This document shows positions 20,321 through 64,000 of a DNA stretch of 64,000 nucleotides, piece by piece; position 1 is the stretch's first letter, and every line of letters begins with the position of its first letter. A program made the position numbers and the translations under genes. The notes below the pieces were generated by a model. It ran no database searches. It was given only the letters and a program-made list of their open reading frames with translations, and was not told the DNA's origin. Origin of the DNA: Gemmata massiliana (GTDB taxonomy: Bacteria > Planctomycetota > Planctomycetia > Gemmatales > Gemmataceae). The stretch lies in assembly GCA_000531095.1 (NCBI GenBank), contig HG799466.1, positions 410,049 to 474,048 of the forward strand, written 5' to 3'.

Positions 20321-20409
20321 GGAGAGGTGGCTGAGTGGTCGAAAGCACCGCTTTGCTAAAGCGGCGTAGAGGTAAAACTCTACCGCGGGTTCGAATCCCG
20401 CCCTCTCCG
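20321..20409 (+). tRNA. tRNA-Ser(GCT)
   Basis: The acceptor GGAGAGG (20321-20327) pairs with CCTCTCC (20402-20408), followed by discriminator G. The anticodon loop CTTTGCTAAAG carries GCT (reads AGC/AGT). The long variable arm TAGAGGTAAAACTCTA and the T-arm GCGGGTTCGAATCCCGC are intact. An integrase remnant lies 110 bp downstream, so the gene is probably an old integration site. Confidence 0.95.
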
Positions 20410-57756: not shown

Positions 57757-58245
57757 CTACGCCGCTTCGTCTTTCCGCACGGGAAGTATGATGGGCGCCT
57801 CGCACCACGCGATAACCGCGTCCAGTTCCCGGATTCCTTCCGATAAATCCGCCACCGGCACCCGCGTTACCAGCTCCTTCCCCACACGAATCGCGATCCG
57901 GTCCGCGAGCCGGTAAACCTTGAGCAGCAGCGCGGACGGGTTCCCGCTCTCCGCGCGCCGCAACACGGCCCGGAGGGTGCGGCACCAGATCGCCAGTCGG
58001 TCGGGGACGTTCTGCGTCGGTTCGGGCAACTGGGCGTTGCGGTATTCGGCGGTAAACTCGCGCAACGCGGCCCGGAACGCCTCGAACGACTTCTGGCGCA
58101 CCTGGAGTTCGGCTGCGGACGCGGCGCTCTTCGCGGGGTCGTCGCGGTGGTTCTCCCACCGGGCCTGGAGGTCGAGAACCCGGACCAGGGCCGTTGCTTG
58201 TTGCGAAGTGAGCTTCTCAGCGGCGCTCTCGCTCATCTGCGGCAT
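57757..58245 (-). CDS. Hypothetical helical protein
   Basis: The 162-residue protein is helical and charged (VRVLDLQARWENHRDDPAKS, SFEAFRAALREFTAEYRNAQ, RAVLRRAESGNPSALLLKVY). It starts at ATG 58245 (MPQMSES; the second ATG is an alternative). No motif is recognised. It faces the kinase-TPR gene and ends 29 bp from it. Confidence 0.65.
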   Translation of the reverse strand: MPQMSESAAEKLTSQQATALVRVLDLQARWENHRDDPAKSAASAAELQVRQKSFEAFRAALREFTAEYRNAQLPEPTQNVPDRLAIWCRTLRAVLRRAESGNPSALLLKVYRLADRIAIRVGKELVTRVPVADLSEGIRELDAVIAWCEAPIILPVRKDEAA

Positions 58246-58618
58246 TTTGGGGCTTTCGCACAGGAGTAGGCGGTCTTACGGATCTCATCGGTCCGATCCG
58301 TTCGGGGGTTCATAGCGAAGCGCGCGAAGAAGGGGAAGACGGGTTGGCGCGGCGGCACATTCGGCCCGTATTTGCGGCAAAAGGTTCCGGTTCGATCGCC
58401 TCTCCTACACATCGCGGTAAGTGTTACAACCGGCCCGAGCACTTCCCGTAACCGTTCCGACCACAAAAGCGAGGAAATCGCGTATCGTCACTCCCGGTCA
58501 CCACAATTCGGGTATTGGCACGCGGTCTGCTTTACTTTGATTCGTCGAACAACAAGTTGGGCCAGTTCCCCCGGCCCGCTCCCCCTACCCCACTCCCCGT
58601 CCCCAACCCTATCCACGA

Positions 58619-58652
58619 GAGCCGGCGACTTGGTCGCCGGCTTCAACTTTTT
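58619..58652 (+). terminator. Plus-strand terminator without a known gene
   Basis: AGCCGGCGAC pairs with GTCGCCGGCT, and CAACTTTTTC follows. No plus-strand gene lies within 800 bp upstream except the kinase-TPR gene, 890 bp away. It may end an unannotated small RNA. Confidence 0.65.
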
Positions 58653-58696
58653 CCCGACCACCAAACTAGAAACTGTGCAACACATGCTCCAAAACA

Positions 58697-58732
58697 AACG
58701 CGGCCCGCTCCGAATTCGGGGCGGGCCGCGTT
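58697..58732 (-). terminator. Terminator of rpsU
   Basis: AACGCGGCCCGC pairs with GCGGGCCGCGTT across a GC-rich inner part. On the minus strand, TTTGTTTTGG follows. It lies 22 bp after rpsU. Confidence 0.85.
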
Positions 58733-58754
58733 CGTTCACTGATCTCGGTCGCGT

Positions 58755-58973
58755 TTAGTATGACCGTTCCTTGGTCGGCGGCTTTCCGAGAGCCGCCTTC
58801 TTAATCGCGCTGCGCCGCTTGGCCTCTTTACGGCTCCGAGCTTCGCACGGCTTCTCGTAGTACTCGTGAGCGCGTAGTTCGCGCTTCAGCCCGCTCCGCT
58901 CGACCAACTTCTTGAACCGCCGAAGGGCCGCCCCAATCGGCTCCCGGTCGTGAACCCGCATGCGCAATCCCAT
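58755..58973 (-). CDS. rpsU: 30S ribosomal protein bS21
   Basis: ATG at 58973 gives MGLRMRVHDREPIGAALRRF, the bS21 opening, with a GGGAGGCAG ribosome site just before it. The rest is the usual basic helix pair (KKLVERSGLKRELRAHEYYE, then KPCEARSRKEAKRRSAIKKA). At 72 residues it is a normal length. It is a translation-initiation protein of the small subunit. A typical terminator follows. Confidence 0.9.
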   Translation of the reverse strand: MGLRMRVHDREPIGAALRRFKKLVERSGLKRELRAHEYYEKPCEARSRKEAKRRSAIKKAALGKPPTKERSY

Positions 58974-59047
58974 TCTGCCTCCCGGATAATGTGACAACGA
59001 GAAATTATACGAGCGCCGGCCCAATGAGCCAGACGAATTACTCTGAG

Positions 59048-59130
59048 ACCGAGGTGGCGGAATTGGCAGACACACTAGATTCAGCTTCTGCGCTCGAAAG
59101 GGAACAGGTTCTAATCACAATAAGGGCATT
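59048..59130 (+). tRNA. tRNA-Leu(CAG) 5' half, chimeric after the anticodon loop
   Basis: 59048-59084 reads ACCGAGGTGGCGGAATTGGC, then AGACACACTAGATTCAG: acceptor strand, D-arm, anticodon stem and loop of tRNA-Leu with anticodon CAG. From 59085 the sequence continues CTTCTGCGCTCGAAAGGGAA, a degenerate imitation of the 3' half, and lacks a matching acceptor end. It cannot fold as a normal tRNA. The missing 3' half lies inverted at 59281-59333. Confidence 0.6.
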
Positions 59131-59249
59131 GAATTGGCATTTTGTCCACCAAAAAGGGCAGCGAATCGGGCTACATGACACGCAGACGACCAAAGCCTAG
59201 ATGGTCCAGCGACGAGAAAATGCTGAAAAATTCTAGCAGAAATGAAAAA

Positions 59250-59275
59250 AGCCCACCGGATTTACCCGATGGGCT
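59250..59275 (-). terminator. Terminator next to the tRNA-Leu 3' half
   Basis: On the minus strand, AGCCCATCGGGTAAATCCGG followed by TGGGCTTTTTTCATTT forms an AGCCCA/TGGGCT stem and a T-run. It lies just after the tRNA 3' half, in its direction, so it is probably the native tRNA terminator. Confidence 0.85.
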
Positions 59276-59280
59276 AAAGG

Positions 59281-59333
59281 TGCCGAGGAGAGGACTTGAA
59301 CCTCCACGCCCTTGCGAGCGCTAGAACCTGAAT
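59281..59333 (-). tRNA. tRNA-Leu(CAG) 3' half, inverted relative to the 5' half
   Basis: On the minus strand it reads ATTCAGGTTCTAGCGCTCGC, then AAGGGCGTGGAGGTTCAAGT and CCTCTCCTCGGCA. This is the complete anticodon 3' side, variable arm, T-arm and acceptor of tRNA-Leu. The 5' half is absent beyond 59336. Joining the ATTCAG of both halves gives a nearly perfect tRNA-Leu. Confidence 0.75.
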
Positions 59334-59501
59334 ATGGTAACATAGAAGATTTATGTATTTTACTAGCAACAACTTGCGACCGGCTTTCGATTGCGCTGGC
59401 GGAATGCTGGCGGGATTTTGCCCCGCGCATCCCCCGACCCCGCACGTCCTCTCCCGCCGTGCGGGCGCCTCACGCGAGGCTTGTCGGCGGAGGCGGGGTG
59501 G

Positions 59502-59756
59502 TCACTCACTGGGCGGGCGGTAGATGCCGATGTGTTCCGCCGTGAAGGTACTCGAACTTGGTTGCCGCTCGAACGGCAACACATCCGGCGCCGGTTCCCG
59601 AAACTCGACCCGCTTCACGATACCGTTCTCGTGGAACTCGATTGCCGCAACGCGCGGGCAAGTTGTTTGCGGGTGAAGCCCGCGACAATACGGACACACG
59701 GGATTCGTTTGTGTCTGCTCGAACATCGTCGCCAACTCCGTTTCCGTGTCACTCAC
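59502..59756 (-). CDS. Small zinc-finger protein of the island
   Basis: GTG at 59756 overlaps the previous stop by 4 nt (GTGA). The 84-residue protein MSDTETELATMFEQTQTNPV then CPYCRGLHPQTTCPRVAAIE has a CxxC..C site, followed by beta-like sequence (EFHENGIVKRVEFREPA). Similar small proteins occur in mobile elements of planctomycetes. Function unknown. Confidence 0.6.
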   Translation of the reverse strand: MSDTETELATMFEQTQTNPVCPYCRGLHPQTTCPRVAAIEFHENGIVKRVEFREPAPDVLPFERQPSSSTFTAEHIGIYRPPSE

Positions 59757-59947
59757 CGGGTTGCCTCCGGTTCGCCATCGTGCCGCTTGAAGGGTCGATA
59801 CCCTTTGCCCGCGCACCACTTGAGCGCATAAGCCAATTCAGCTTCGTGGTTCTCATCGCACCAATCAGCGCATACGAGCAACGGTTGCGGGAGTAAAAGA
59901 CCCGCAACCTCAATTGCCGACGAGAACTCTTCAAGTCGCGTGGCCAT
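59753..59947 (-). CDS. Small hypothetical protein of the island
   Basis: The 64-residue product MATRLEEFSSAIEVAGLLLP continues QPLLVCADWCDENHEAELAY. Its stop overlaps the next GTG, so it is translated together with it. It lies 8 bp after the P63C gene. No family recognised. Confidence 0.55.
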   Translation of the reverse strand: MATRLEEFSSAIEVAGLLLPQPLLVCADWCDENHEAELAYALKWCAGKGYRPFKRHDGEPEATR

Positions 59948-59955
59948 AATCGCTC

Positions 59956-60900
59956 CTACGCTGCTTCTGCTTGTAGGTCAATGCCCGGAAGGTCGCCAAA
60001 ATCGAGCTGAACACTGTGGCCCGGTTTGGGGCAAGCTCGGTCGAGTGACCGCACGAACTGCCGCCAGTCCGCGGACGCCCGCATGAGTCCAGTGACAACC
60101 GCCAAGTGTCGATCCAGTTCCCGCCGCCCAACGTCTTCGGTTAGAAGCTGATGGTGCTTCCCCTCGCGGCGACGAGCACCGTCATCGGCTTCCTTCATGG
60201 GATTGCGTTTCTCGAGTTCTTCCAGAATGCCTGGGGCAAGGCGCTCGTACACGATGTCCTTGGTGAGCTGAGCGAGGTGCCGCGGTCCGCACGCCGGGTT
60301 GGTTGGATCCCATTTCCAGTTCCGCAGCATGAAAATTCGCTGGTAGAACTCCGGAAAGAACGTCATCGACCACTCAGCGAATTCTTTTCTCAGATAGCGG
60401 TCAAAGATAGACCGCAGCGCCGCCTTATCGCGGTTTTCCTGGAATCCTGTCGCCTCGTCGATCAGAGCCACAATGCCGGTCTTCGCCAAAGACCGAACAA
60501 GCATCTCGCACATGTCCGCAATCGGCGATTGGTGCGGCAAGAGAACGCCAGCGCGACGAGCATCAAGGTACACGTCGCAAACCGCTGGGAGCGTAGTCGC
60601 CTCGTACCCAACAAACACTCGGTGATTAATGGGGTGCCGGTAGTGGATGGGAGACATGTTGAAACCCTTAGAAATAAAGGGTTTTAGGTTCCCAGATGCC
60701 AAAAACGACGGCATCTGGGAGACATCGTTTTCTAAGGCGCTTTTGTTGCCTTTGGCGTTAGCCGAGTAGCCGAGAGCCGCCCGGTACCCGCGGCCACTTA
60801 GAATGCGGACGCCATCTTTCGATACCGCGCACGTGATGACGCGGTCAAGGATGTTGAACTGCCCAATGTGGCTAACTTCGACAACGTGTTCAGCAACCAT
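59956..60900 (-). CDS. P63C-domain phage-like protein
   Basis: The start ATG at 60900 gives MVAEHVVEVSHIGQFNILDR, then VITCAVSKDGVRILSGRG and a 314-residue product. Its C-terminal P63C-like region has FAEWSMTFFPEFYQRIFMLR, YERLAPGILEELEKRNPMKE, REGKHHQLLTEDVGRRELDR and HLAVVTGLMRASADWRQFVR. The first 100 residues resemble proteins acting on phage or plasmid DNA. P63C proteins are common in prophages and related islands; their biochemical role is not clear. Confidence 0.75.
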   Translation of the reverse strand: MVAEHVVEVSHIGQFNILDRVITCAVSKDGVRILSGRGYRAALGYSANAKGNKSALENDVSQMPSFLASGNLKPFISKGFNMSPIHYRHPINHRVFVGYEATTLPAVCDVYLDARRAGVLLPHQSPIADMCEMLVRSLAKTGIVALIDEATGFQENRDKAALRSIFDRYLRKEFAEWSMTFFPEFYQRIFMLRNWKWDPTNPACGPRHLAQLTKDIVYERLAPGILEELEKRNPMKEADDGARRREGKHHQLLTEDVGRRELDRHLAVVTGLMRASADWRQFVRSLDRACPKPGHSVQLDFGDLPGIDLQAEAA

Positions 60901-61252
60901 CACAACCTCAATGTTGTTTTGCGGCCAGATGTGACTGCGAAGCTGGCGTAGCCGCGGAAGTGCGTCAGACGTGCTTCTTGGTCGTAAAGGGCTGACCGCC
61001 GGGCGTCGAGGCGACCAAGAGAACCTGTTCGCCCGGCAGTCACGCAATGTTCGCACCGCTGGCCGGCAGCGCGAACGCCCACCCCAAGTTCGTCCCATCC
61101 GGGGGAACTTGGCTCAACAGAGTTCATCGGCACCGATACCGCAGAACTTGCGCGCGGTGCAAGATTAAATTGTCGCTTGTGACACCGGTATGTCACATTC
61201 CGATAGGTGGCCGCAGAAATACGCAAAGATCTACAGGTATCCACAGAATCAG
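60901..61252. other. Intergenic stretch of about 350 bp with a palindrome
   Basis: No gene is supported. A dyad TGTGACA-CCGGTA-TGTCACA at 61178-61197 could be a regulator-binding site for the minus-strand operon. No promoter was identified. Confidence 0.4.
61178..61197. promoter_or_regulatory. Palindromic candidate operator
   Basis: TGTGACA and TGTCACA form a perfect 7-bp dyad spaced by 6 bp, 278 bp upstream of the P63C gene. It may be bound by the KilA-N or another island regulator; this is a guess from symmetry only. Confidence 0.35.
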
Positions 61253-61492
61253 TCAGGACCGCTTGCGGCTTCGTTTCGCGCGAGGAAGCGTGAACTGGCG
61301 CATGCAGTCGTCGCACCCGGCGACCCGCGGCGTCGTCTTCAAGTCGTGGCAGATGTACGTGAACGTGGATTCACAATGCGGGCACGGCGGCCCGTCGTGC
61401 GGAAGGGCATTCAGATACGCATCCCAGTCCGAGAGCGTGGTTTCGGCGCCTGCTCCCTTGTTCGTGGGAGCAGCAGAAGATAAACTCGGCAT
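61253..61492 (-). CDS. Small zinc-ribbon-like island protein
   Basis: ATG at 61492 (MPSLSSAAPTNKGAGAETTL) after an AAGAGG-type site. The 79-residue protein has CPHCESTFTYICHDL and CDDCMRQFTLP, two Cys pairs likely to bind zinc, and a basic end (RAKRSRKRS). It could bind DNA. It follows the KilA-N gene by about 70 bp on the same strand. Confidence 0.6.
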   Translation of the reverse strand: MPSLSSAAPTNKGAGAETTLSDWDAYLNALPHDGPPCPHCESTFTYICHDLKTTPRVAGCDDCMRQFTLPRAKRSRKRS

Positions 61493-61562
61493 GAGCGAAC
61501 CTCTTGATGGGGTGTGAGTGGGAGCCAAAACGGGAATTCCCGTTTTGGCGTAATTGCTGTGA

Positions 61563-62324
61563 TTAGCTGGCTTTGCGTTCGGTTTCTGGAGAGAACAGGT
61601 GCGGTGGGGCCAACCGAGCGGCGTGCAAGACTTCTTCGTGGGTCTCGTCAATCGCTTCGTCGAGTAGCCCGAGCATCGGACCGTAGAACCGATCGGGGCC
61701 GCCACCGCCCGGGCCGCCCGCGGTATCCGGCCCTTGGTCCGGGCACCAACTGTCGATCTTTGCCAGCGCCCGCTTGTGGATCTTGCGGCGAATCTCCTTG
61801 GACGTGGTGTGCCACCCCTTCCACTTTAGCCGCTCCCGAACCGTGAACCGCGGTACGCCCAGAACGGGCGGCTGGAGCATCGGACTCATGGTGATGCGGT
61901 CGATCTGCTGCTGCATGTGCTCCATGCGACCCGTCATCTTCTCGAACTGCTCGACCGTCAGTGTGACCGTGTTAGGACGCAACTCCACCTTGCCAGTGGA
62001 CAGCAGTTCCTGAACCCATTCGGTCACCTGAACTGCAAACTCTGGAGACGCCCACTGGATGAAGTGGATGACGATTTGTGGGTGAATCCAAGTGTGCCCG
62101 CCACGCCCACTCGTCACTTCAACGAGCTTTAGACCGCCGTTTGGCGTTCCAGTGGATATGCGACTTTCGAGAGCATGCAGAAATCGTTTCGTTTCTTTTC
62201 GCTTGGTGTAGCTGTACCACTCGCGATTCGCCAGCTTGCACAGCGCCGTTGCGTCCACGTAGTTGTCTTCCGGTCTCGCGTGGATTTCGACAGAACCGAA
62301 CTTCCGAACCAATTCGCCAGCCAT
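61563..62324 (-). CDS. KilA-N domain protein
   Basis: ATG at 62324 (MAGELVRKFGSVEIHARPED) with GGAGGTG just before. Residues about 15-110 form the KilA-N domain: NYVDATALCKLANREWYSYT, HPQIVIHFIQWASPEFAVQV, TEWVQELLSTGK. KilA-N is a DNA-binding domain of phages and large DNA viruses. A helical middle and a Gly/Pro-rich stretch (GPDTAGGPGGGGPDR) follow. It probably regulates or acts on the island's DNA. Confidence 0.82.
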   Translation of the reverse strand: MAGELVRKFGSVEIHARPEDNYVDATALCKLANREWYSYTKRKETKRFLHALESRISTGTPNGGLKLVEVTSGRGGHTWIHPQIVIHFIQWASPEFAVQVTEWVQELLSTGKVELRPNTVTLTVEQFEKMTGRMEHMQQQIDRITMSPMLQPPVLGVPRFTVRERLKWKGWHTTSKEIRRKIHKRALAKIDSWCPDQGPDTAGGPGGGGPDRFYGPMLGLLDEAIDETHEEVLHAARLAPPHLFSPETERKAS

Positions 62325-62496
62325 CGAACACCTCCGTTTGTGAACCACCACCATCCTTATCGACTAGTCTTGAGTAAACACTAGAGAACTTTTATTCTCT
62401 TTGGCGAACCGAGTCAACCGGAGTAGTGAAGTTTTTCGATAAGTACCGGTAAGCACAACGAAGAACAGTTAAGATAACTGAGCGTGGGGGAGCACA

Positions 62497-62778
62497 ATGG
62501 GCGTTGAGGAGTGCGGCGAGATGCCTACGATTGCAGACATGGCGAAATCACGCGGGCGGAAGCCGAAAGTAGAAGGCGCTGAAGCGGCGCCAGAGGTTCC
62601 CGGAAAGAAGCGGCTCGGAGTGAACTTCACTCAGGATTGGCACGCGGTTCTGCGAAAACTCGCGGGCAAACGCAAAATGCCAGTCTTGTGGTACCTGATC
62701 GACCTCGCCCGTGAAGACGCTGAAAAACAGGGGCTTACAGACCTGCCCCCACTCCCGTGGGAAGAGGAAGCCGAGTAG
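62497..62778 (+). CDS. Small RHH-like protein, divergent to KilA-N
   Basis: The 93-residue product MGVEECGEMPTIADMAKSRG has a basic N-terminal stretch, then KRLGVNFTQDWHAVLRKLAG, which resembles a ribbon-helix-helix DNA-binding segment. GTGGGGGAGC precedes the ATG. It is divergent from the KilA-N gene by about 170 bp, a typical spot for a regulator. Function is inferred only. Confidence 0.5.
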   Translation: MGVEECGEMPTIADMAKSRGRKPKVEGAEAAPEVPGKKRLGVNFTQDWHAVLRKLAGKRKMPVLWYLIDLAREDAEKQGLTDLPPLPWEEEAE

Positions 62779-62831
62779 CCGCGTTCCGTCGATGATGTGG
62801 TAGATTACCTACACCCCACACGGAGTGCGTC

Positions 62832-63119
62832 ATGTCTCGGAAACTGTTGGCGTTCCTGCTCAGCGAATTGGGTCTCGTGCGCATCATCTGTCGGCGCCCC
62901 ACGTGCGGCGCCACGGTGGAAATGTCGCTCGAGCAGGTGGGGACCAAGTTCAAGGTCAACCACCCGCCCGAGTGCCCGGTGTGCGGCGGCACGTTCCAGG
63001 GGCTCAAGACCGGCTGGGACAACGAACTGGTCCGCCTCTCGGAGTCCATCCGAGCGCTGCGGGACCGCAAGGACGTGCTCGAAGTCGAGTTCGTGTTGCC
63101 CGACACCTCGGGCGAGTAG
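62832..63119 (+). CDS. Zinc-ribbon protein, island-encoded
   Basis: The 95-residue product MSRKLLAFLLSELGLVRIIC continues with CRRPTCGATVEM and CPVCGGTFQGL, a four-Cys zinc ribbon. A helical part (ELVRLSESIRALRDRKDVLE) follows. No family recognised. It lies 53 bp after the RHH-like gene on the same strand. Confidence 0.55.
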   Translation: MSRKLLAFLLSELGLVRIICRRPTCGATVEMSLEQVGTKFKVNHPPECPVCGGTFQGLKTGWDNELVRLSESIRALRDRKDVLEVEFVLPDTSGE

Positions 63120-63171
63120 CCGCGCGCGGGCCGCGGTTGCTTGCGTGCCGTGCCCGCGTGGGGTGTAAGAC

Positions 63172-63375
63172 GTGGCGAATCCCTCGGACCCACTCCTGCA
63201 CACGCAGGAGGGAATTGCATTTCTTCTACTCGAACGCATTTCTCGCGAAGAGAGCGGCACACCAAAAGCTAAGAACACCCGCGAGTATTGGCTTGAGCTT
63301 TACACGGAGTGCCTTCGTGCGGTGAAGACCCCGCCATCACCACCGCCGTCAACAGATCCACCTTCGGGCCGATGA
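63172..63375 (+). CDS. Small hypothetical protein
   Basis: GTG at 63172 starts MANPSDPLLHTQEGIAFLLL, then ERISREESGTPKAKNTREYW. The last 15 residues are a Pro-rich low-complexity end overlapping the minus-strand frame at 63269. The gene is plausible but uncertain. Confidence 0.38.
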   Translation: MANPSDPLLHTQEGIAFLLLERISREESGTPKAKNTREYWLELYTECLRAVKTPPSPPPSTDPPSGR

Positions 63376-63457
63376 GTTCCGGAGGCACGTCTTTCTCAAT
63401 GAATTGTTGCACCAGTGCATAACGGACGTTTTGCTCTGCGGTCAACGAAGAGTTCAT
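63269..63457 (-). CDS. Small hypothetical protein
   Basis: ATG at 63457 gives MNSSLTAEQNVRYALVQQFI and EKDVPPELIGPKVDLLTAVV, a clean helical sequence. It overlaps the plus-strand frame at 63172-63375, so only one may be real; this one looks more protein-like. Confidence 0.42.
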   Translation of the reverse strand: MNSSLTAEQNVRYALVQQFIEKDVPPELIGPKVDLLTAVVMAGSSPHEGTPCKAQANTRGCS

Positions 63458-63558
63458 GGCGCTCTCGTATTGGGGAACCCGATACCGCGGGCGAATTACA
63501 AACGAGATTGTGTGCCCGGTCGGGGGAACTAGACCGGGCACCGCTGGGGGATGCGGTC

Positions 63559-63702
63559 ATGCGCGCGGAAGATGAAAGCCACAGACTAGTTCGGCATAAA
63601 CGAAAGTCGCGGTTCCGCCTCGTGACTTGGAACGAGTTCTGTTTCGGTTTCGCGCTGTTGGCGATTATCACGCTGTTATTTTTGATACTCGCGCGCAACT
63701 AG
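63559..63702 (+). CDS. Small single-helix membrane protein
   Basis: ATG at 63559 gives MRAEDESHRLVRHKRKSRFR, then LVTWNEFCFGFALLAIITLL and FLILARN. A basic N-terminus and one hydrophobic helix are clear. At 46 residues it is short, and no family is recognised. Confidence 0.4.
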   Translation: MRAEDESHRLVRHKRKSRFRLVTWNEFCFGFALLAIITLLFLILARN

Positions 63703-63995
63703 GAGTTGCCACCACTAGGCCTCGCGTTAGCCGAAGATTGTGGCGGTGGCGTGTATTGCTTCCCCTGCGAAATCGAAACCAGCACGTCAAAGATTTTCAG
63801 CAGCATGTCAACAATCGGTTTGAGTGGCCCACCGTCCTCGTAGCCTTCTCCCGCGGTCGCCCGGATGATGCTCCGCTGGAACTGGAAGTATTGCTCCCCC
63901 GCGGTCGTCATGTCCGCGGAGAACGGTGTCACATCGCGGCGCGGCGCGGCGACGGCGTTGGCGTCCGGCATTTGGAGCCCGTACCGATCTTTCAT
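63699..63995 (-). CDS. Hypothetical protein at the right edge
   Basis: The 98-residue frame starts MKDRYGLQMPDANAVAAPRR and runs through FQFQRSIIRATAGEGYEDGG to a Pro/Ser-rich end. The gene is complete here. It ends next to the plus-strand gene at 63702. Function unknown. Confidence 0.45.
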   Translation of the reverse strand: MKDRYGLQMPDANAVAAPRRDVTPFSADMTTAGEQYFQFQRSIIRATAGEGYEDGGPLKPIVDMLLKIFDVLVSISQGKQYTPPPQSSANARPSGGNS

Positions 63996-64000
63996 GGCGG

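What the first reader, a model, noticed from the sequence alone, without database searches (positions are those of the whole stretch)
59048..59333. tRNA-Leu(CAG) split into two halves in opposite orientation
Seen: 59048-59084 is the 5' half (plus strand) ending in ATTCAG; 59281-59333 (minus strand) starts with ATTCAG and is the complete 3' half, with its terminator. Flipping the segment between them would restore a nearly perfect tRNA-Leu with anticodon CAG (only the first acceptor pair would be A-C). The plus copy continues with a degenerate 3' imitation. Known: tyrosine recombinases often cross over in anticodon loops. Inference: the two junctions are attL and attR of an element, later inverted, or the segment is invertible, or an assembly error joined them.
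Basis: partly seen in the sequence, partly recalled or inferred. Interest (0 to 1): 0.75.

Follow-up and report, generated by a model that had tools for sequence, protein, structure and literature searches.

The report
Prophage end inside a tRNA gene
The half tRNA gene is the leftover end that a 61-kb virus displaced when it inserted itself into a leucine tRNA gene, whose working copy was rebuilt at the virus's other end; this is an ordinary way for bacterial viruses to integrate, with one small unexplained extra tRNA fragment beside it.

Summary
The sequence observation is correct: a tRNA-Leu(CAG) 5' part lies on + (59048-59084) and a perfect 3' part on - (59281-59333); ARAGORN calls a tRNA-Leu(CAG) if they are joined. 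But they are not partners. An intact tRNA-Leu(CAG) lies 61.2 kb to the right, beyond the window, oriented like the minus half. A 54-bp, 100% identical direct repeat (59280-59333 and C5:530497-530550) bounds a 61,169-bp unit carrying terminase, portal, HK97-type capsid, Erf and a tyrosine integrase that ends 130 bp from the intact tRNA. So the minus half is the displaced fragment at attL of a tailed-phage prophage; attR holds the rebuilt tRNA. IMG/VR already holds this prophage.

The plus fragment lies outside the prophage, in a 233-bp segment of 48.5% G+C between the rpsU flank and attL. It is 35/37 identical to the tRNA up to ATTCAG, then decays. I read it as scar of an older, mostly lost element, because a 5.2-kb element in one relative has a similar layout. 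Its inverted orientation is unexplained. An invertible segment, an integrase-made inversion or a join error remain possible but untested. Ordinary, with a minor oddity.

The parts
59280..59333 (-). attL core: displaced 3' part of tRNA-Leu(CAG), 54-bp direct repeat with C5:530497-530550 (attR)
   Evidence: 100% over 54 bp, unit 61,169 bp; no tRNA called here by ARAGORN
59250..59275 (-). terminator hairpin behind the displaced 3' part (older tRNA end)
   Evidence: 11-bp stem and T run; 59238-59333 shared with the intact tRNA-Leu locus of relative G002, 97% over 96 bp
59334..64000 (.). left 4.7 kb of the 61-kb tailed-phage prophage, which continues to C5:530550 outside the window
   Evidence: phage genes within C5:469382-530497; IMG/VR UViG_2600255093_000007, 100% over the two pieces compared, neither of which lies in the window
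59395..59417 (+). two candidate arm-type integrase sites of the prophage (GCTGGCGGAATG, GCTGGCGGGATT); third copy at C5:530381 (GCTGGCGGAGTT)
   Evidence: motif taken from these places, then scanned; the same scan also hits the D-arm of the tRNA with 2 mismatches, so this is weak; function inferred
59956..60900 (-). prophage gene, antirepressor-like
   Evidence: phrog_2384 (unknown function) E 2.6e-87; phrog_2899 anti-repressor E 2.7e-7
61563..62324 (-). prophage gene with KilA-N domain
   Evidence: PF04383 E 1.6e-17
59048..59084 (+). opposite-strand tRNA-Leu(CAG) 5' part ending at ATTCAG; not part of the prophage
   Evidence: 35/37 identical to the intact tRNA
59085..59131 (+). degenerate continuation, alignable to the tRNA 3' part or to arm-site repeats
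   Evidence: 32 identities, 10 mismatches, 11 gaps; alternative alignment
59124..59167 (+). two arm-like repeats (59124 GGGCATTGAATT, 59156 GGGCAGCGAATC) resembling the GGGCAGTGAATT repeats that go with one integrase family in relatives
   Evidence: 1 and 2 mismatches; the window has 4 matches at up to 2 mismatches against 2.98 expected; consensus; weak on its own
58755..58961 (-). rpsU (ribosomal protein bS21): chromosomal left flank, homologous to relative G008 up to 59046
   Evidence: PF01165 E 3.3e-16

Best explanation
A temperate tailed phage of a Gemmata-like planctomycete integrated by its tyrosine integrase into the anticodon loop of the tRNA-Leu(CAG) gene (shown: direct repeats, integrase gene, phage genes, intact tRNA at the other end). 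Recombination at ATTCAG joined the chromosomal 5' half to a 3' half carried by the phage, so a complete tRNA gene stands at attR; the old 3' half with its terminator was pushed to attL, at window 59250-59333 (inferred from anatomy). The plus-strand 5' copy lies outside the prophage, next to attL. It is most likely scar DNA of an older tRNA-Leu-targeting element that was largely deleted (inferred, about 0.5).
For: 54-bp 100% direct repeat, same orientation, 61,169 bp apart. Intact tRNA-Leu(CAG) at one end, fragment at the other. Integrase PF00589 E 7.4e-17, gene end C5:530367 beside attR. Terminase phrog_38 E 3e-71, portal and capsid, Erf, ParB-like, helicase. Joining the right flank to the displaced half gives a called tRNA-Leu(CAG), the predicted empty site. 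The tRNA's upstream flank is syntenic in relatives, e.g. 3.1 kb at 86% in G008. tRNA-Leu(CAG) has displaced or second copies in other genomes: G005, G063, G081, G112, G116. For the plus copy: a 5.2-kb element in G005 has an opposite-strand tRNA-Leu 5' part beside its arm-like repeats at the tRNA-proximal end.
Against: No relative shows an empty site with the same left flank: in the five relatives whose rpsU locus was fetched, no tRNA-Leu match lies in the fetched stretch. The terminator at attR is also found beside the intact tRNA of G008 (98% over 130 bp), where no part of this prophage matched in the 3 kb fetched downstream, so which terminator is ancestral is unclear. 13 of the 25 proteins of the region given to PHROGs had no match. 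The arm-like repeats beside the plus copy are weak: 4 matches at up to 2 mismatches in the window against 2.98 expected. The inverted 5' part is not general: absent in two other elements of that integrase family with both ends seen (G078, G009), and only 1 of 32 loci with a tRNA-Leu match (31 distinct places, one is held twice) had a second copy in the opposite orientation.
Confidence: 0.9

Rival explanations
1. The 59048-59333 segment is an invertible cassette: an integrase flips the piece between the two inverted ATTCAG sites, rebuilding tRNA-Leu(CAG) on either strand.
For: The flipped join is called tRNA-Leu(CAG). A tRNA-Leu-targeting integrase inverts DNA between inverted tRNA-Leu sites in archaea (PMC5495485, passages seen). 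A similar inverted half exists in G005.
Against: The cell already has the intact gene at attR. The plus copy differs from the tRNA at the base right after ATTCAG (C for G), inside the expected overlap. Only one comparable locus among 32 with a tRNA-Leu match.
Confidence: 0.05
2. An integrase-made or other large inversion joined two tRNA-Leu att sites, leaving one half inverted and bringing rpsU next to the tRNA.
For: The best rpsU match and tRNA-Leu are 0.24, 1.5 and 1.9 Mb apart in G002, G012 and G008. The homology of the rpsU flank to G008 breaks at 59046, within 3 bp of the tRNA-like start. Precedent PMC5495485.
Against: No reciprocal junction was seen in the three own-genome stretches examined. 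In the own genome the 20-mer scan finds only the intact gene, the plus copy and one other tRNA-Leu-like site on C10.
Confidence: 0.2
3. Assembly error at 59047.
For: The junction coincides with repeated tRNA sequence; no reads are available.
Against: The contig is 930 kb in a 22-contig assembly. The plus copy has its own substitutions, so it is not a misplaced identical copy.
Confidence: 0.07
4. A split tRNA gene whose halves are transcribed apart and joined.
For: Two halves ending and starting at the anticodon loop.
Against: An intact tRNA-Leu(CAG) is present; the minus half is explained as attL; the consensus scan found no sigma-70-like promoter in 58950-59500, which is weak evidence in this phylum.
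Confidence: 0.01

Closest known systems
Prophages and genomic islands in tRNA genes with a displaced tDNA fragment (Islander, PMC4383910; abstract and passages seen)
   Same: Regenerated tRNA at one end, displaced 3' fragment in the same orientation at the other, tyrosine integrase inside, crossover in the anticodon loop
   Different: Nothing essential; an extra opposite-strand 5' fragment lies outside the island
tRNA-dependent lysogeny (PMC10865867; abstract and passages seen)
   Same: Temperate phage, tyrosine integrase, tRNA target; this prophage also encodes a tRNA-Leu, anticodon TAG by ARAGORN
   Different: Here a long 54-bp core rebuilds the host tRNA, so no phage tRNA is required
Integrase-driven chromosome inversions between tRNA sites, pTN3 of Thermococcus (PMC5495485; abstract and passages seen)
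   Same: Inverted tRNA-Leu sites near an integrated element
   Different: Archaeal; inversion activity shown there, not here
IMG/VR UViG_2671180531_000006
   Same: Related phage; 3.9 kb around the integrase are 98.8% identical in DNA
   Different: Other aligned pieces are 89-97% identical, the rest of the two loci compared did not align

Membership tests
tRNA-integrated prophage/island (Islander sense) | Intact tRNA at one end and fragment of the same tRNA at the other, same orientation | tested here: met
   54-bp direct repeat
tRNA-integrated prophage/island (Islander sense) | Integrase gene inside the interval | tested here: met
   PF00589, C5:529297-530367
tRNA-integrated prophage/island (Islander sense) | Joined flanks give an intact target gene | tested here: met
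   ARAGORN on the joined empty site
tRNA-integrated prophage/island (Islander sense) | An unoccupied relative with the same two flanks | tested here: inconclusive
   right flank syntenic, left flank not next to tRNA-Leu in the relatives fetched
tRNA-integrated prophage/island (Islander sense) | Plus copy as the matching fragment (same orientation as the intact tRNA) | tested here: not met
   opposite strand; Islander rejects such pairs
Tailed-phage prophage | Terminase, portal, major capsid | tested here: met
Tailed-phage prophage | Excision and particles | not testable with these tools
   no reads or culture
tRNA-dependent lysogeny | Host tRNA not rebuilt on integration | tested here: not met
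   intact tRNA at attR
Invertible DNA switch | Both orientations present in a population | not testable with these tools
   no reads
Split, trans-spliced tRNA | No intact gene for that tRNA | tested here: not met
   intact tRNA-Leu(CAG); joining of RNA not testable

The most novel reading that the evidence does not exclude
Elements that target tRNA-Leu in this group carry, on the inner side of their arm sites, a second tRNA half in inverted orientation, so that the arm segment lies between two facing crossover sites and can flip, moving the working tRNA from one strand to the other or driving chromosome inversions; the window and G005 would be two instances.
Probability: 0.05. Interest if true: 0.6.

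Novelty: new member of a known kind. Interest (0 to 1): 0.2.

Why it matters
It resolves an odd-looking split tRNA as a mapped prophage end and shows tRNA-Leu(CAG) as a repeated landing site for mobile elements in Gemmata-like planctomycetes. To my recall their phages are little described; the one search made for this found 34 papers with both words, and none of the 15 titles listed is about Gemmata prophages. The inverted half is worth a read-level check only because integrase-made inversions could help explain rearranged gene order in these genomes.

Tried and rejected
Split or trans-spliced tRNA: rejected, intact gene found. Plus and minus halves as attL and attR of one short element: rejected, the minus half pairs with C5:530497. 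Reciprocal rearrangement junction: three own-genome stretches were fetched, namely the homologue of G008's tRNA left flank (L127), the RRM gene (L128) and the homologue of G012's rpsU neighbour (L129); against window 58000-60000 they gave only matches with E 0.07 or worse. The matches to G012's tRNA left flank were not followed. Hidden RNA in 58950-59450: only two sub-threshold Rfam matches, over the terminator. Prophage relatives: no match for the portal protein in the phage collection, none for the integrase in genome contigs, where records near the window's genome may be left out; IMG/VR gave two UViGs for the integrase and six for the capsid. Exact pattern scans of IMG/VR for the attL inner sequence and the plus copy found nothing. 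Same integrase at the same tRNA in the genus: none of the matches listed for the other 18 genomes lies within 50 kb of that genome's tRNA-Leu(CAG) on the same contig (against; many are drafts); the closest, 71% in G008, has no tRNA within 1.5 kb by ARAGORN. Four further paper searches gave the cited papers and no report of such an inverted half among the titles listed. I did not establish the species name of the window's genome; 'Gemmata-like' rests on recall and on the related records titled Planctomycetota and Planctomycetaceae.

Full report
Observation. The sequence at 59048-59084 (+) is ACCGAGGTGG...ATTCAG and the reverse complement of 59281-59333 begins ATTCAGGTTC. Neither ARAGORN nor Rfam at gathering threshold calls a tRNA there; the only tRNA called in the window is tRNA-Ser at 20321.

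The intact gene. The window is C5:410049-474048 of a 9.27-Mb, 22-contig genome. An intact tRNA-Leu(CAG) lies at C5:530497-530581 on the minus strand, the same orientation as the minus half in the window. The shared stretch is 54 bp without a mismatch, window 59280-59333 and C5:530497-530550, 61,169 bp apart start to start. Left of the repeats the two terminators differ; right of them the sequences differ: the phage end at attL, the 5' half at attR.

The element between. A simple codon-usage gene call and profile searches give terminase large subunit (phrog_38, 3e-71), portal (PF04860, 8.8e-16) and HK97-type capsid (PF05065, 1.7e-28), head-tail adaptor (2.8e-6), Erf-like annealing protein, ParB-like protein and DNA helicase, KilA-N and antirepressor-like genes and a tyrosine integrase (PF00589) at C5:529297-530367 reading towards the intact tRNA. 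Of 25 proteins given to PHROGs in three calls, 12 had a match at E 0.001 or better and 13 had none, among them the largest given (1044 residues). Candidate arm sites lie at 59395, 59406 and C5:530381; the motif was taken from these places and also hits the tRNA itself with 2 mismatches, so this is suggestive only. IMG/VR UViG_2600255093_000007 is identical to this region over both pieces compared, 5,071 and 9,263 bp, and UViG_2671180531_000006 is a related phage, 98.8% identical over 3.9 kb around the integrase. The joined empty site, right flank plus displaced half, gives a called tRNA-Leu(CAG).

Landing site in relatives. In 59 genomes searched, 57 had some match to the query, which holds rpsU and the tRNA parts. 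The upstream flank of tRNA-Leu(CAG) is syntenic with several genus members, 3.1 kb at 86% with G008. Behind the gene, several different terminators and flanks are seen among the 15 other loci printed; some are shared, as between the window's genome (attR) and G008, G012 and G007, or G010 and G018. Displaced or second copies of the tRNA-Leu 3' part were seen in G005, in G001 (60 bases from tRNA position 25 to the end on a small contig) and, in the wider family, in G063, G112, G116 and G081. So this gene is a repeated target. Islander (PMC4383910; [quoted passage not shown]

The plus copy. It lies outside the prophage. The rpsU side of the window is homologous to G008 (91% over 2.1 kb) up to 59046 and to G012 up to 59042; the tRNA-like sequence starts at 59048 or 59049. 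The segment 59048-59280 is 48.5% G+C against 64.6% for window 1-59280, which points to foreign DNA, though its right end, from 59238, is shared with the tRNA-Leu terminator region of G002. The plus copy is 35/37 identical to the tRNA up to ATTCAG, then drops to 32 identities with 10 mismatches and 11 gaps over 47 bases. This abrupt change at the crossover point is what an attachment junction would look like, but the right part can also be aligned to arm repeats.

A comparable case. In G005 (L090) a 5.2-kb element with integrase, a DUF3987 protein and 59-bp direct repeats sits in tRNA-Leu(CAG). It has GGGCAGTGAATT repeats near both ends and, on the inner side of the tRNA-proximal set, an opposite-strand tRNA-Leu 5' part (L090 8561-8592, 94% over 33). 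The repeats recur with related integrases at tRNA-Leu(TAG), (CAA), (CAG) and tRNA-Pro(GGG) in G078, G114, G081 and G009; they are seen at both ends in L090, L160 and L164 and, for G081, in L163 with L182. I read them as arm-type integrase sites. Of 16 loci examined, 8 had a match within one mismatch, 2 of them (L167, L170) only to a GGGCACTGAATT variant; 8 had none. The window has two such repeats, with 1 and 2 mismatches, at 59124 and 59156; the window as a whole has 4 matches against 2.98 expected, so the case rests on two of them lying within 44 bases at the expected place. Against a general rule: G078 and G009 have no inverted half, and of 48 loci scanned, 32 had a tRNA-Leu match (31 places, since L163 and L183 overlap) and only L090 had a second copy in the opposite orientation. 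The similar layout suggests that the left part of 59048-59280 is scar of an older element; why the half is inverted is not explained.

Inversion. The pTN3 integrase of Thermococcus inverts DNA between inverted tRNA-Leu sites (PMC5495485; abstract and passages seen), so an integrase-made rearrangement is possible here: in G008, G012 and G002 the best rpsU match and the tRNA-Leu are 1.9, 1.5 and 0.24 Mb apart. I looked for the reciprocal junction in three own-genome stretches and did not find it. The plus copy has C where the tRNA has G right after ATTCAG, inside the expected overlap, which should hinder crossover with the minus half.

Verdict. The minus half is the attL fragment of an ordinary tRNA-integrated prophage; the plus half is a separate small oddity. 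Assembly error at 59047 cannot be tested here because no reads are held.

Noticed in passing
G000:C9:204218-206714 (L047): Array of 19 tRNA genes by ARAGORN within 2.5 kb, several with low Rfam scores, two of them with anticodon CAG; looks like a mobile-element tRNA array.
   Followed up: partly
G000:C4:636303-637705 (L048): Second tRNA array, 12 tRNA genes in 1.4 kb plus one more downstream.
   Followed up: no
C5:474635-474724 (L043:7636-7725), just right of the window: The prophage carries a tRNA-Leu gene, anticodon TAG by ARAGORN (37 bits), although its integration rebuilds the host tRNA-Leu(CAG).
   Followed up: no
L090:3474-8828 (G005:C130): Complete 5.2-kb integrative element with integrase, DUF3987 protein and repeats GGGCAGTGAATT near both ends; such repeats recur with related integrases at four tRNA types in this family.
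   Followed up: partly
L182 and L183 (G081:C1:1369167 and 1400360): Two tRNA-Leu(CAG) copies 31 kb apart in the same orientation; the left one matches tRNA positions 1-64 and then decays, followed by arm-like repeats, so the long repeat includes the 5' half as well.
   Followed up: no
L176:4239-4318 (G063:C1): Second tRNA-Leu copy still called as tRNA-Leu(CAG) by ARAGORN, with the same 20-mer variant (GGCAGACACACTAGATTCAG) as the window's plus copy.
   Followed up: no
L164:9677-17232 (G009:C43): Element in tRNA-Pro(GGG) with a 48-bp repeat, arm-like repeats near both ends, and a second divergent integrase gene just beyond the far repeat.
   Followed up: no
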